A stretch of 64,000 nt of DNA, from contig JAVKHP010000001.1 in NCBI GenBank assembly GCA_031459855.1, positions 602,059 through 666,058 of the forward strand, given 5' to 3'. The notes below the pieces were generated by a model. The model was not told the DNA's origin, searched no databases, and saw only the letters and a program-made list of their open reading frames with translations. Position numbers and translations under genes: made by a program. This DNA comes from Armatimonadota bacterium (GTDB lineage: Bacteria > Sysuimicrobiota > Sysuimicrobiia > Sysuimicrobiales > Humicultoraceae). Positions 6,042 to 47,933 of the stretch are shown here, piece by piece. Positions within the stretch are counted from its first letter, which is position 1. Each line of letters begins with the position of its first letter.

Positions 6042-6805
6042 GCCTGCGCGGCACCGGTGCCGTGTGGGGGCCACCGGCTGTGGTGGTGGTCGCCAGCCTG
6101 CTCCTGTGGGAGCTCGCTGCGCGCGTCATGCCGGTCTTCGTGCTCCCCGGCCCCCGGGACGTTACCGGCGCCCTGGCGCAGTGGCGGGCGGCGATCTGGT
6201 TCAACGCGGCGCAGACCCTCGGCACCACCCTCGTGGGGTTCGGGCTGGCCATCGCGGCCGGCCTGGGCCTGGGGATGGCGGTCGGCTACTCGGCGCTGGC
6301 CTACCGCGCGCTCTACCCGCTGCTGGTGGCGTTCAACAGCGTGCCGAAGGCCGCCATCGTGCCGGTGCTGGTGATCTGGTTCGGCATCGGCACCGTCCCG
6401 GCCATCCTCACGGCGTTTCTGATCTCGTTCTTCCCCATCGTCGTCAACGTCGCCACGGGCCTGGCCACGATCGAGCCCGAGCTCCAGGACGTGTTGCGCT
6501 CGCTGGGCGCCACGCGCCGCGAGATCTTCACCAAGATCGGCATCCCCCGGTCCCTCCCCTATTTCTTCGCCTCGTTGAAGGTGGCGGCCACCCTCGCGTT
6601 CGTCGGGGCCGTGATCGCGGAGACCGTGGCCTCCAACCGCGGCATCGGATACCTGATGCTGGCGGCCAGCTCCCGCTTCGAGGTCCCGCTGGTCTTCGCC
6701 GGCCTGGTGGTGGTGGCGGCGATGGGCGTGGTGCTGTTCGCGGTGTTCGCCGTGCTGGAACGCCGCCTGGCCGGATGGGCGTACCGGGGGCAGGGCACGA
6801 CGTGA
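6038..6805 (+). CDS. ABC transporter permease (SsuC/BPD_transp_1 type)
   Basis: A 255-aa inner-membrane permease with about six hydrophobic segments. The EAA-type cytoplasmic loop, which contacts the ATPase, reads LRSLGATRREIFTKIGIPRSLPYF. It starts with an ATGA overlap with the ATPase and ends with a GTGA overlap with the AllG-like gene, so all four genes are physically one operon. Confidence 0.92.
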   Translation: MSLRGTGAVWGPPAVVVVASLLLWELAARVMPVFVLPGPRDVTGALAQWRAAIWFNAAQTLGTTLVGFGLAIAAGLGLGMAVGYSALAYRALYPLLVAFNSVPKAAIVPVLVIWFGIGTVPAILTAFLISFFPIVVNVATGLATIEPELQDVLRSLGATRREIFTKIGIPRSLPYFFASLKVAATLAFVGAVIAETVASNRGIGYLMLAASSRFEVPLVFAGLVVVAAMGVVLFAVFAVLERRLAGWAYRGQGTT

Positions 6806-8196
6806 GCCGCGCACCCGACGACCCCGCAGCCGCCACGCGGCCAGCGCGCAGCGAGGGATCGCTGGCTGGCGCTACGTGTGTGCCGGCGCCGGCCGGGTCG
6901 GACGCGCCGCCTGCGGCGGGCACGGTGTCGGCACGGATCGCCGCGGCCAACGCCGCGGCGCTGCGGCGGCTCGACCGCGGTGCGCCGGTCCTCGTCGGCC
7001 TGCGCGTGGCCCGCGAGGTGATCCCGCCGCTGGCCGGGGGCCGCGCCCTGCTCCACGCCGGGCCCCCGGTTGCGGTCGAGCGCCTGTGTGGGCCCATGCG
7101 GGGCGCGTGCATCGGGGCCGCCCTCTACGAGGGATGGGCGCACGCCCCCGACGCTGCCGCCGCCCTGCTGGACCGCGGGGCGATCGCCCTGCACTGCACG
7201 CACGACTGGAACGTGGTCGCACCCATGGCCGGCGTGGTCTCGCCCTCGATGCCGCTGTTCGAGGTGCACGACGACGCTGCGGGCGTGGTGGCCTACGGCC
7301 CGCTCAACGAGGGCATCGGCGCGGTGCTGCGGTTCGGGGCGTACGGCGCCACGGTGCTCGAGCGCCTGCGCTGGCTGCAGGAGGTGCTGGCACCGGCGCT
7401 GGATGCAGCGCTCCGGCGCGCCGACGGTGTGGCCCTGGTGCCGCTCGTGGCCCGTGCCCTGACCATGGGCGACGAGCTGCACCAGCGCAACGTGGCCGCC
7501 ACCAGCCTGTTCCTCCGTCAGGTCGGACCGCTGCTAGCGGAGGTGACGACGGGCGCCACCCTGACGGCCATCCTGCGCTTCCTGAGCGAGGTCGACCAGT
7601 TCTTCCTGAACCTGGCGATGGCGGCGGCGAAAGCCCTGACACTCGCGATCCGCCACCTGCCCGGCTGCACGCTGGCCTCGACAATGAGCCGCAACGGCGT
7701 GGAGTTCGGCCTGCGGGTGAGTGGCCTCGGCGACCGGTGGTTCACCGCGCCAGCCCCCATGCCCGACGGCCTGTACTTCCCCGGCTACACCGCAACCGAC
7801 GCCAACCCTGATATGGGGGACTCGGCGATCGTGGAGACCGTGGGCCTGGGCGCGTTCGCCATGGCCGCGGCGCCGGCGGTCGTGGGGTTCCTGGGGCTGG
7901 GCTCGGTGCGCGCGGCCATGGAGATCACCCGGGCCATGGGGGAGATCACCGCAGGCCGGAGCAGCCGGTTGCTGATCCCTGCGCTGGAGTTCGAGGGGAC
8001 GCCGCTGGGGATCGACGTGCGCGCCGTCGTGCGCCTGGGGACGACGCCGGTGATCAACACCGGCATTGCCCACCGCGCACCGGGCGTCGGACAGATCGGT
8101 GCGGGGATCGTCCGGGCACCCCTCGAGGCGTTCGAGCAGGCGCTGGAGGCCCTGGGCGCTGCCCTCGCGCCGACCACCGGCCCCTGCACCGATTGA
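6802..8196 (+). CDS. allG: DUF1116 protein, AllG-like (oxamate carbamoyltransferase subunit family)
   Basis: A 464-aa protein of the DUF1116 family, to which E. coli AllG (YlbE) belongs. Recognisable segments are ALLHAGPPVAVERLCGPMRGA, HCTHDWNVVAPMAGVVSPSMP, GDELHQRNVAATSLFL and TMSRNGVEFGLRVSG. In enteric bacteria AllG acts with AllF (FdrA) and AllH in making or using carbamoyl phosphate from oxalurate at the end of allantoin breakdown. Here neither partner is adjacent. The first 45 residues (rich in A, P and D) look like a linker, so the true start could be at a later GTG or ATG. The GTGA overlap with the permease couples it to ureide or purine uptake. Confidence 0.75.
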   Translation: MSRAPDDPAAATRPARSEGSLAGATCVPAPAGSDAPPAAGTVSARIAAANAAALRRLDRGAPVLVGLRVAREVIPPLAGGRALLHAGPPVAVERLCGPMRGACIGAALYEGWAHAPDAAAALLDRGAIALHCTHDWNVVAPMAGVVSPSMPLFEVHDDAAGVVAYGPLNEGIGAVLRFGAYGATVLERLRWLQEVLAPALDAALRRADGVALVPLVARALTMGDELHQRNVAATSLFLRQVGPLLAEVTTGATLTAILRFLSEVDQFFLNLAMAAAKALTLAIRHLPGCTLASTMSRNGVEFGLRVSGLGDRWFTAPAPMPDGLYFPGYTATDANPDMGDSAIVETVGLGAFAMAAAPAVVGFLGLGSVRAAMEITRAMGEITAGRSSRLLIPALEFEGTPLGIDVRAVVRLGTTPVINTGIAHRAPGVGQIGAGIVRAPLEAFEQALEALGAALAPTTGPCTD

Positions 8197-45971: not shown

Positions 45972-46367
45972 CTACCCGCCGCCGGCCTGGCAGGCCGCGC
46001 AGATCCCGTAGATGCCCAGCTGGTGCCCGGTCATGCGGAACCCCGCGGGCAACAGGCGCGGGACGTGGGGCACGATGCACTGCCGCAGCGCCTGAAAGCG
46101 TCCGCAGCGCACGCAGACGGCGTGGTCGTGGTGTTTGGCCGCGAGCCCGTAGCGGACGCCGCCGTCGGCGAGGTAGGCTGGCTCCACCAGCCCGCTGCGC
46201 ACGAACAACTCCACGGTCCGATAGACCGTGGCCAGCCCCACCCGGTGCCCGCGCCGCCGCAACCGGCCGTGGATCTCGTCCGCCGTCAGATGACAGCCTG
46301 CCGCCGCGAGGATCTGGAGGATACGCGCGCGCTGGCGTGTCTGCCGTGGTGTCGCTGCGATGTGCAT
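45972..46367 (-). CDS. fur: Fur-family metalloregulator (Zur-like)
   Basis: A 131-aa repressor. The winged helix spans about 8-75 (QTRQRARILQIL, HLTADEIHGRLRRRG, ATVYRTVELFVRSGLV). The regulatory metal ligands include AKHHDHAVC (about 78-85). Structural zinc cysteines are CVRC (85, 88) and CAAC (123, 126). Zinc-transporter genes downstream suggest Zur. A Fur-type operator lies 22 bp upstream of the ATG, so the fur-znuA-znuC operon is probably autoregulated by metal. Confidence 0.92.
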   Translation of the reverse strand: MHIAATPRQTRQRARILQILAAAGCHLTADEIHGRLRRRGHRVGLATVYRTVELFVRSGLVEPAYLADGGVRYGLAAKHHDHAVCVRCGRFQALRQCIVPHVPRLLPAGFRMTGHQLGIYGICAACQAGGG

Positions 46368-46388: not shown

Positions 46389-46405
46389 TTGAGAATTATT
46401 TTCAA
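46389..46405 (-). promoter_or_regulatory. Fur-family operator
   Basis: TTGAGAAT-T-ATTTTCAA, an 8-1-8 palindrome with a single mismatched pair, in the AT-rich form used by Fur/Zur/PerR proteins. It lies just downstream of the promoter start point and upstream of fur. Confidence 0.85.
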
Positions 46406-46415
46406 ATTCGAGCCC

Positions 46416-46445
46416 ATGGTAGGCCCACCGCGGTGGACCTGTCAA
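46416..46445 (-). promoter_or_regulatory. Promoter of fur-znuA-znuC
   Basis: On the - strand: -35 TTGACA (46440-46445), 18-bp spacer, -10 TACCAT (46416-46421). The spacer holds a perfect 12-bp palindrome CCACCGCGGTGG (46425-46436), which could be a second binding site. Confidence 0.7.
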
Positions 46446-46840
46446 GTGCGGGCACGGCTGCGCGGGTACGGCGGTGGTGGCGTGGCGGAGGACGCGGTGC
46501 CCGGCACGGGGCTCCGCCGAGGCCGCGGCCGCAAGCCCGCGTGGTGGGCCCGTTCCTCGGAGGCGTCCGGGCAGACCGGGACGTGCCCGCGAGGGCGTTG
46601 ACCGGTTGCCCGAGGCGTTCCCCGTCGTGCTGGAAACCGTCGACGCAGGCTGGCACGGCCGGCCCGGGGGAGGCAAGGGGATGCGACGGTGCGCCCAGTT
46701 GCCCGCAGGGCGCTGCGCAGGGGAAGATCAGGTCGGCGTCGGTACGCCGTGCCGGAGTCGGCGACCAACGCGTGCTCCCCGGTGGGCCGGCCGCGCCATC
46801 TCCAGCGTACTGGTGAGGACGCGGCCCCAAACGGGCCCCG
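46446..46840 (-). other. Region without a recognisable gene, behind the riboswitch
   Basis: About 400 bp between the riboswitch terminator and the fur promoter. Frames are open on both strands, but the predicted products are Arg/Pro/Ala-rich and resemble no protein. A decayed gene or a long leader is possible. Confidence 0.45.
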
Positions 46841-46890
46841 CAAACAACGACGCGAGCGCCGGGGAAGCACTCGCGTTCGCCTGTGCTTCC
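46841..46890 (-). terminator. Riboswitch expression platform (terminator/antiterminator)
   Basis: Read on the - strand: hairpin A GGAAGCAC ... GTGCTTCC (46863-46890) and hairpin B GCGAGTGC-ttccccg-GCGCTCGC (46852-46874) share the same bases and exclude each other. B is followed by GTCGTTGTTTG, a T-rich tail, so B is an intrinsic terminator and A its antiterminator. The 3' strand of riboswitch P1 (GAGG) overlaps the base of A. Confidence 0.85.
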
Positions 46891-46976
46891 TCTTCGGCAA
46901 CCCGGCCGACCACCGCTCCCGGTGGTCCCGTCGGCTTTGCGTCCCCGGATTACTCCGGGTTTGCCCGTTCGGAGGT
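46889..46976 (-). promoter_or_regulatory. c-di-GMP-I (GEMM) riboswitch aptamer
   Basis: On the - strand the conserved core appears in order. P1 is CCUC/GAGG. GGGCAAACC is followed by the P2 stem CCGGA with a GUAA (GNRA) tetraloop and UCCGG. Then come GGACGCAAAGCC, a P3 hairpin (ACCACC ... GGUGGU), and the closing GCCGGGUUGCCG. These are the c-di-GMP-I signature elements, including the tetraloop that docks on P3. The aptamer runs straight into a terminator/antiterminator pair. Confidence 0.92.
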
Positions 46977-47004
46977 TCGCCGCGCTATGCGATTGGTGCC
47001 TTGC

Positions 47005-47033
47005 ATACTAGCGCATCCGCGCCGTTTTGGCAA
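47005..47033 (-). promoter_or_regulatory. Promoter of the riboswitch RNA
   Basis: On the - strand: -35 TTGCCA (47028-47033), exactly 17 bp, -10 TAGTAT (47005-47010). The transcript would begin near 46998, about 20 nt before the aptamer. Confidence 0.75.
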
Positions 47034-47198
47034 CGCCAGTTCGGGAGAGGTTCGTGGCGAAGCCAAGGGAACTTCCGCGTGTGGCCGTCGTGGCCCCACC
47101 GGCCGAATTCGGGCGCGCAGGTCCCCACCTCCGCCAGCGACGACGCTTCCACAACAGGACGCAGGAGGACCCACGGCACTTCGCCGAAGGCAACGCCC

Positions 47199-47933
47199 GT
47201 GCAGGATGCCGAGTACCTGATCCGACACCTGGTGGACTGGCTGCGGGCACGTGCCGATGAGGCCGGCGCCGTGGGTGCGGTGGTGGGGATCTCCGGCGGG
47301 GTCGACTCGGCGACCGTGGCCGCGCTGTGCCTGCGTGCTTTCCCCGACGCCACCCTGGGCGTGGTGATGCCCTGCCACTCCGACCCGCGCGACCTCGACG
47401 ACGCCCGCACGGTGGCCGGGGCGCTGGGTCTGCCGGTGACGACCGTGGTGCTCGACGGAGTCTACGACGCCCTGGTGGCCGCGCTGCAGACGTCGGCCTA
47501 CTACGCCGACCACCGCCTTGCGCTGGCCAACCTGAAGCCGCGCCTGCGCATGACCACGCTCTACTACTTCGCCAACCGCCTCAACCGGCTGGTGGTCGGC
47601 ACCGGCAACCGCAGTGAGCTCGCGGTCGGATACTTCACCAAGTACGGCGACGGCGGTGTGGACGTGCTGCCGCTGGGCTGCCTGACCAAGGGCGAGGTGC
47701 GGGCGCTGGCCCGGGCGCTCGGCGTGCCGGAGGCGATCGTGGACCGCGTGCCCACGGCCGGGCTGTGGCCGGGCCAGACCGACGAGCAGGAGCTCGGCCT
47801 AACCTACGCCGTCCTCGATCGGTACCTCCTCACGGGCGAGGCGCCCGCCGACGTGCGCCAGCGCATCGAGCGGCTGCGCGCGGCCAGCGAACACAAGCGG
47901 CGCCCCCCACCCGTTCCCGAGTTGCCCCGCTGA
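47199..47933 (+). CDS. nadE: NAD+ synthetase, ammonia-dependent
   Basis: A 244-aa enzyme amidating nicotinic acid adenine dinucleotide. The PP-loop is GISGGVDSATVAALC (about 28-42). RLRMTTLYYFANRLNRLVVGTGNRSE, VGYFTKYGDGGVDVLP and the C-terminal WPGQTDEQELGLTY complete the family pattern. There is no glutaminase domain, so free ammonia is used. The GTG start has GAAGG at a suitable distance. Single gene, divergent from the riboswitch promoter. Confidence 0.92.
   Translation: MQDAEYLIRHLVDWLRARADEAGAVGAVVGISGGVDSATVAALCLRAFPDATLGVVMPCHSDPRDLDDARTVAGALGLPVTTVVLDGVYDALVAALQTSAYYADHRLALANLKPRLRMTTLYYFANRLNRLVVGTGNRSELAVGYFTKYGDGGVDVLPLGCLTKGEVRALARALGVPEAIVDRVPTAGLWPGQTDEQELGLTYAVLDRYLLTGEAPADVRQRIERLRAASEHKRRPPPVPELPR

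What the first reader, a model, noticed from the sequence alone, without database searches (positions are those of the whole stretch)
46841..47033. Complete c-di-GMP-I riboswitch with promoter and transcription-termination switch
On the - strand, a -35/-10 pair with an exact 17-bp spacer is followed by every conserved element of a c-di-GMP-I (GEMM) aptamer, including a GUAA tetraloop on P2. Two mutually exclusive hairpins come next, the second followed by a T-rich tail. P1's 3' strand overlaps the antiterminator, which gives a simple mechanism by which ligand binding would favour termination.
Basis: partly seen in the sequence, partly recalled or inferred. Interest (0 to 1): 0.8.

Follow-up and report, generated by a model that had tools for sequence, protein, structure and literature searches.

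The report
c-di-GMP riboswitch controlling noncoding RNA
An RNA sensor for the bacterial messenger c-di-GMP is followed not by a protein gene but by a newly recognised, conserved, folded noncoding RNA, which suggests that the messenger switches a regulatory RNA on and off in this uncultured bacterial lineage.

Summary
A full-length c-di-GMP-I (RF01051) aptamer lies at 46975-46893 (-), 63.8 bits against a cut-off of 35. Its promoter (TTGCCA-17-TAGTAT), P1, antiterminator and terminator are conserved in relatives. The two competing folds differ by about 1-3 kcal/mol in all six related copies, as expected of a switch. The aptamer has the c-di-GMP-type residues (G20/A47/C92) but lacks the P3 tetraloop-receptor bulges.

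No protein gene follows closely. DNA conservation resumes past the terminator as a 146-nt structured RNA domain (46797-46652, -), closed by a 14-bp helix, with covarying pairs, no codon signature and sharp ends. The same promoter-aptamer-terminator-domain unit occurs in five genomes of four genera of one bacterial family. In four it precedes a zur-znu operon that has its own promoter and palindromic operator. In the fifth it stands alone, 12 kb from zur, facing a convergent gene.

Best reading: a c-di-GMP OFF switch for a standalone noncoding RNA, built like EutX/Rli55 but with another ligand. The domain matches no Rfam 15 family; its target is unknown. No expression data exist; ligand response and transcription are inferred.

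The parts
47005..47033 (-). Promoter: -35 TTGCCA (47033-47028), 17-base spacer, -10 TAGTAT (47010-47005); start predicted near 46998
   Evidence: hexamers and 17-base spacing kept in the copies of G002, G003, G006 and G008
46893..46975 (-). c-di-GMP-I (GEMM-I) aptamer, GUAA loop on P2, residues equivalent to G20/A47/C92
   Evidence: RF01051, 63.8 bits, gathering score 35; residue mapping read by me from the alignments
46889..46892 (-). 3' strand of P1 (GAGG), pairs with CCUC 46975-46972; shares GG (46890-46889) with the antiterminator
   Evidence: invariant in six copies
46863..46890 (-). Antiterminator hairpin GGAAGCAC (46890-46883) / GUGCUUCC (46870-46863)
   Evidence: 5' arm invariant in six copies, 3' arm differs only in its last base in one copy
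46840..46876 (-). Intrinsic terminator hairpin (46876-46850) with T-rich tail (46849-46840), mutually exclusive with the antiterminator
   Evidence: hairpin conserved and T tail stronger in relatives; -18.9 kcal/mol alone
46652..46797 (-). Conserved structured noncoding RNA domain, 146 nt: closing helix 46797-46784 with 46665-46652; inner helix 46780-46775 with 46672-46667; hairpin A 46771-46736; hairpin B 46713-46691
   Evidence: Found in five genomes of four genera; covariation; folding z-score -3.7; no codon periodicity; no Rfam match
46389..46445 (-). Separate promoter of the zur-like gene (TTGACA 46445-46440, 18 bases, TACCAT 46421-46416) and palindrome TTGAAAATAATTCTCAA (46405-46389); argues against control of zur from the riboswitch promoter alone
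45972..46367 (-). Neighbouring gene, Fur/Zur-family regulator, first of zur-znuA-znuC-znuB; not thought to be the controlled gene
   Evidence: Pfam FUR, ZnuA, ABC_tran, ABC-3

Best explanation
This is a self-contained transcription unit: promoter, c-di-GMP-I aptamer, transcription-termination switch, then a structured noncoding RNA. At low c-di-GMP the nascent RNA forms the antiterminator, polymerase passes the terminator and a noncoding RNA of at least about 350 nt is made. At high c-di-GMP the bound aptamer holds P1, which takes two G residues from the antiterminator; the terminator forms and only a leader of about 160 nt is made. The long RNA probably acts in trans through its closed 146-nt domain, by binding a protein or by pairing with mRNAs through its conserved loops. 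Shown here by computation: the aptamer, the alternative helices and their conservation, and a covarying, non-protein-coding domain. Inferred: ligand response, polarity, transcription past the terminator, action in trans. The target is unknown.
For: RF01051 at 63.8 bits. P1-plus-terminator and antiterminator states within about 1-3 kcal/mol in all six copies, the layout of the Cd1 OFF switch (PMC9262584). Conservation resumes past the terminator after a variable spacer. Domain in five genomes of four genera, once per genome, each time downstream of an aptamer. Six pairs with changes on both sides among four sequences, against 0-1 in slid controls; RNAalifold finds the closing helix and hairpin A unaided; G006, left out of the model, scores 93 bits. 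Folding z-scores -2.9 to -6.4, against -0.35 for the antisense strand and +1.2 for the flank. No codon periodicity, indels not triplets. In G006 the unit is 12 kb from zur and a convergent gene ends about 24 nt past it. zur has its own promoter in all five genomes. The aptamer lies 526 nt from the next gene, against about 100-230 nt for the other six in this genome.
Against: No expression data. Only five homologues in one family, two of them in one genus, and hairpin B is reduced in that genus. No conserved terminator at the 3' end of the domain. In four of five genomes zur follows, so read-through into zur cannot be excluded. The T tail of the terminator in the window copy is weak. Six genomes of the family lack the domain (some are incomplete).
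Confidence: 0.68

Rival explanations
1. Conventional leader: the riboswitch controls the downstream zur-znuA-znuC-znuB operon by termination, and the domain is part of a long 5' untranslated region, tying zinc uptake to c-di-GMP.
For: The unit lies directly upstream of zur on the same strand in four of five genomes; no terminator is evident between the domain and zur in the window.
Against: zur has its own promoter in all five genomes and a palindromic operator in four; the distance from domain to zur varies from about 120 to about 845 nt; in G006 the unit is 12 kb from zur and faces a convergent gene; the stretch between domain and zur is not conserved.
Confidence: 0.14
2. Store or sponge: the RNA serves mainly to hold c-di-GMP, as proposed for merRNA of Bdellovibrio, and the domain only stabilises it.
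For: merRNA is a noncoding RNA with a c-di-GMP-I aptamer and no gene downstream (PMC3627812); the closed GC-rich helix could protect the 3' end.
Against: A conserved, energetically balanced termination switch would cut the domain off exactly when c-di-GMP is bound; a store needs no switch.
Confidence: 0.09
3. The downstream block is conserved as DNA (for example a protein-binding or recombination site) or is a decayed remnant, not an RNA.
For: Only five copies; part of the domain is lost in genus g3; no transcript is known.
Against: Compensatory changes and many G-U pairs that make sense only as RNA of this strand; low folding energy on the sense strand but not on the antisense strand; promoter spacing and switch kept across genera.
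Confidence: 0.07

Closest known systems
c-di-GMP-I riboswitch (RF01051), especially the Cd1 transcriptional OFF switch of Clostridioides difficile (PMC9262584)
   Same: Aptamer class; aptamer and terminator can coexist and compete with an antiterminator that borrows part of the aptamer-stabilising strand.
   Different: Cd1 controls flagellar protein genes; here a structured noncoding RNA follows. P3 lacks the bulged tetraloop receptor.
EutX / Rli55 of Enterococcus and Listeria (PMC5821096)
   Same: A riboswitch on its own promoter controls by termination whether a noncoding RNA is extended into its functional 3' part; the unit need not be joined to a coding gene.
   Different: Senses adenosylcobalamin; its 3' part is a dual-hairpin sponge for the ANTAR regulator EutV. 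Here the aptamer is c-di-GMP-I and the 3' part is a closed multi-helix domain without that motif; target unknown.
merRNA of Bdellovibrio bacteriovorus (PMC3627812)
   Same: A noncoding RNA of similar size (445 nt) with a c-di-GMP riboswitch and no conserved reading frame downstream.
   Different: merRNA was proposed as a c-di-GMP store and reported as not conserved outside Bdellovibrio. Here a conserved termination switch precedes a conserved domain in another lineage; no sequence comparison with merRNA was run.

Membership tests
c-di-GMP-I riboswitch (RF01051) | Covariance-model score above the gathering threshold over the full aptamer | tested here: met
   63.8 bits, threshold 35, model positions 1-87
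c-di-GMP-I riboswitch (RF01051) | Ligand-contact residues G20, A47, C92 (not A20 of the cGAMP type, nor the UAU or GGC variants) | tested here: met
   Alignments; mapping of the residue numbers is mine. The G20A change shifts binding to cGAMP (PMC6274999)
c-di-GMP-I riboswitch (RF01051) | GNRA loop on P2 docking into a tetraloop receptor of P3 | tested here: inconclusive
   GUAA loop present; receptor bulges CUAA/AUG absent, as in the RF03168 model with its continuous P3
c-di-GMP-I riboswitch (RF01051) | Binds c-di-GMP with high affinity and changes gene expression | not testable with these tools
   Needs in-line probing and in vitro transcription
Transcription-termination (OFF) riboswitch | Mutually exclusive antiterminator and terminator, with P1 competing for the antiterminator | tested here: met
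   conserved in six copies, states within about 1-3 kcal/mol; ligand effect itself not tested
Riboswitch-regulated noncoding RNA (EutX/Rli55 kind) | Own promoter, and a conserved noncoding domain downstream of the riboswitch terminator | tested here: met
Riboswitch-regulated noncoding RNA (EutX/Rli55 kind) | Acts in trans on a target when the long form is made | not testable with these tools
   No expression or interaction data
EutX/Rli55 proper | Adenosylcobalamin aptamer | tested here: not met
   The aptamer is c-di-GMP-I; no cobalamin family matches
6S RNA (RF00013), considered because of the long closed stem | Match to RF00013 | tested here: not met
   No match in the window; the genome's own 6S RNA is elsewhere, at C1:2697358-2697546

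The most novel reading that the evidence does not exclude
A c-di-GMP counterpart of EutX/Rli55: a c-di-GMP riboswitch that decides by termination whether a trans-acting structured noncoding RNA of a previously undescribed family is made.
Probability: 0.6. Interest if true: 0.75.

Novelty: new variant of a known kind. Interest (0 to 1): 0.6.

Why it matters
Riboswitches that control a noncoding RNA instead of a protein gene are rare, and the best-studied case (EutX/Rli55) senses adenosylcobalamin. If this one works as read, c-di-GMP could act beyond the cis genes of its riboswitches, through a diffusible RNA. It also gives a defined 146-nt RNA family whose partner can be sought, and a concrete answer to what an orphan c-di-GMP riboswitch may do.

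Tried and rejected
Protein-coding reading of the domain: frames are open because of high GC, but substitutions show no codon periodicity and indels are not multiples of three. In-frame upstream extension of nadE over the unit (ORF 46689-47933 +): rejected, because the unit is not next to nadE in G006 and another gene lies between in G002 and G008. 6S RNA: rejected. Known Rfam family for the domain: none convincing up to E 5. Weak model hit in G029 (33.8 bits, L169): overlaps the end of a reading frame and has no aptamer nearby, taken as chance. Plasmid search with the locus: no match. Exact-pattern scan of named genomes: only the copies of G003 and G006 look genuine, judged by matching contig lengths; the other nine hits are in other taxa and were not examined. 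One fold (L164) used wrong coordinates and is ignored; it was repeated.

Full report
Observation. The finding is real. cmscan gives one match in the window, RF01051 c-di-GMP-I, over the full model at 46975-46893 (-), 63.8 bits against a gathering score of 35. In the small interval the variant model c-di-GMP-I-UAU scores 62.3 bits, below its own cut-off. The residues that contact the ligand read G20, A47, C92, the c-di-GMP type, by my mapping of the Vc2 numbers onto the Rfam alignments. P2 has a GUAA loop. The bulged tetraloop receptor of P3 is missing, so not every classical element is there. The genome holds seven such aptamers and seven GGDEF domains; all 42 relatives searched in the order carry aptamers as well.

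Switch. Aligning the window copy with five related copies (G002, G003 twice, G006, G008) shows P1 (CCUC/GAGG) and the 5' arm of the antiterminator invariant, the 3' arm nearly so, and the terminator hairpin conserved, with a longer T tail in some relatives. In constrained folds the P1-plus-terminator state and the antiterminator state lie within about 1 to 3 kcal/mol of each other in every copy (window: -66.7 and -68.7). These energies ignore tertiary contacts and ligand. The layout, in which aptamer and terminator coexist and compete with an antiterminator, is that of the Cd1 OFF switch described in PMC9262584. I therefore infer that c-di-GMP favours termination.

What it controls. The next coding gene on the strand is a Fur-family regulator (45972-46367), 526 nt after the aptamer, followed by znuA, znuC and znuB genes. 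The other six aptamers of this genome sit about 100 to 230 nt before their genes: a sensor kinase and GGDEF cluster, a sigma factor, roadblock-type genes, glycoside hydrolases and two prepilin clusters (functions judged by eye from the translations). A DNA search of relatives showed that similarity continues about 240 nt past the aptamer. Between genera, identity is 78-91% over the antiterminator and terminator, drops to 26-55% in a spacer, returns to 71-79% over the first part of the downstream domain (and to 75-79% over the second part in the three full-length copies), and falls to 32-45% beyond it.

The domain. It occupies 46797-46652 (-), 146 nt. A 14-bp helix closes it; inside are a short inner helix, hairpin A with the loop A(C/A)UCCGGCA, and hairpin B with the loop UGCGGGCAACU. 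Its folding z-score is -3.7 in the window and between -2.9 and -6.4 in the four relatives, against -0.35 on the opposite strand and +1.2 in the downstream flank. On an alignment of four sequences 94.9% of cells pair and 6 pairs have changes on both sides; structures slid by 1-3 columns give at most one such pair. RNAalifold finds the closing helix, inner helix and hairpin A without being told; hairpin B is not supported by covariation. A covariance model built without G006 finds G006 at 93 bits. The count on alignment A6 is higher, but that alignment is fitted to the model and includes the chance G029 row, so I do not lean on it. Substitutions show no codon periodicity and indels are not triplets. 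No Rfam family matches. Among 43 genomes of the order the domain occurs once each in five, from four genera of one family.

Autonomy. In G002, G003, G008 and the window genome the unit precedes zur. In all five genomes zur has its own TTGACN-17/18-TANNAT promoter, and in four a clear palindrome of the kind TGAGA...TCTCA (weak in G006). In G006 the unit keeps its promoter and lies between nadE and zur on the same contig, but 12 kb from zur, with a convergent gene ending about 24 nt past the domain. This argues that promoter, switch and domain form one independent unit.

Organism. Two of the related contigs belong to uncultured MAGs that NCBI labels Armatimonadota (G003 and G006 match the lengths of JACQHU010000059.1 and JAVHMA010000026.1). 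They may belong to the group now called Sysuimicrobiota (PMC11604079), but I did not test that.

Comparison. The arrangement works like EutX/Rli55, where a cobalamin riboswitch ends a noncoding RNA before its protein-binding part (PMC5821096). Bdellovibrio merRNA is a c-di-GMP aptamer in a noncoding RNA, proposed as a store (PMC3627812). My literature searches found no c-di-GMP riboswitch described as switching a noncoding RNA on and off; the library is open-access only, so such a report may exist elsewhere.

Limits. Everything is computational. The 3' end of the RNA, its transcription, the ligand response and the target are not shown. Five homologues are few. The aptamer itself is ordinary; the interest lies in what follows it.

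Noticed in passing
window 46389-46445 (-): The zur-like gene has its own promoter (TTGACA-18-TACCAT) and a palindrome TTGAAAATAATTCTCAA between promoter and start codon; relatives carry the related TGAGAAAGATTCTCA, a likely Zur operator.
   Followed up: partly
L136 (G003:C133), 7745-7628 (-): A second copy of the same aptamer-antiterminator-terminator platform (87% identical) stands before a protein gene with cysteine-rich stretches (6570-7502), so one platform serves both a coding gene and the noncoding RNA in that genome.
   Followed up: partly
own genome C1:1564520, 2814804, 2816871, 1012312, 1941224, 1933679 (L001-L003, L005-L007): Six further c-di-GMP-I aptamers before a sensor kinase/GGDEF cluster, a sigma factor, roadblock-type genes, glycoside hydrolases and two prepilin clusters.
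   Followed up: partly
G039:C4:11974-12163, G025:C57:3992-5316, G036:C4:679-1949, G013:C4:148056-148568: Several relatives carry two or more c-di-GMP-I aptamers in close series on one strand, possibly tandem riboswitches.
   Followed up: no
G006:C49 (L132): Genes that look copper-related (SCO1-, CopC-, CopD-like) and a second metal-uptake ABC cluster lie between nadE, the riboswitch unit and zur, which are neighbours in other genomes.
   Followed up: partly
own genome C1:2697358-2697546 (-) (L163): A 6S RNA (RF00013, 54.1 bits) in this lineage.
   Followed up: no
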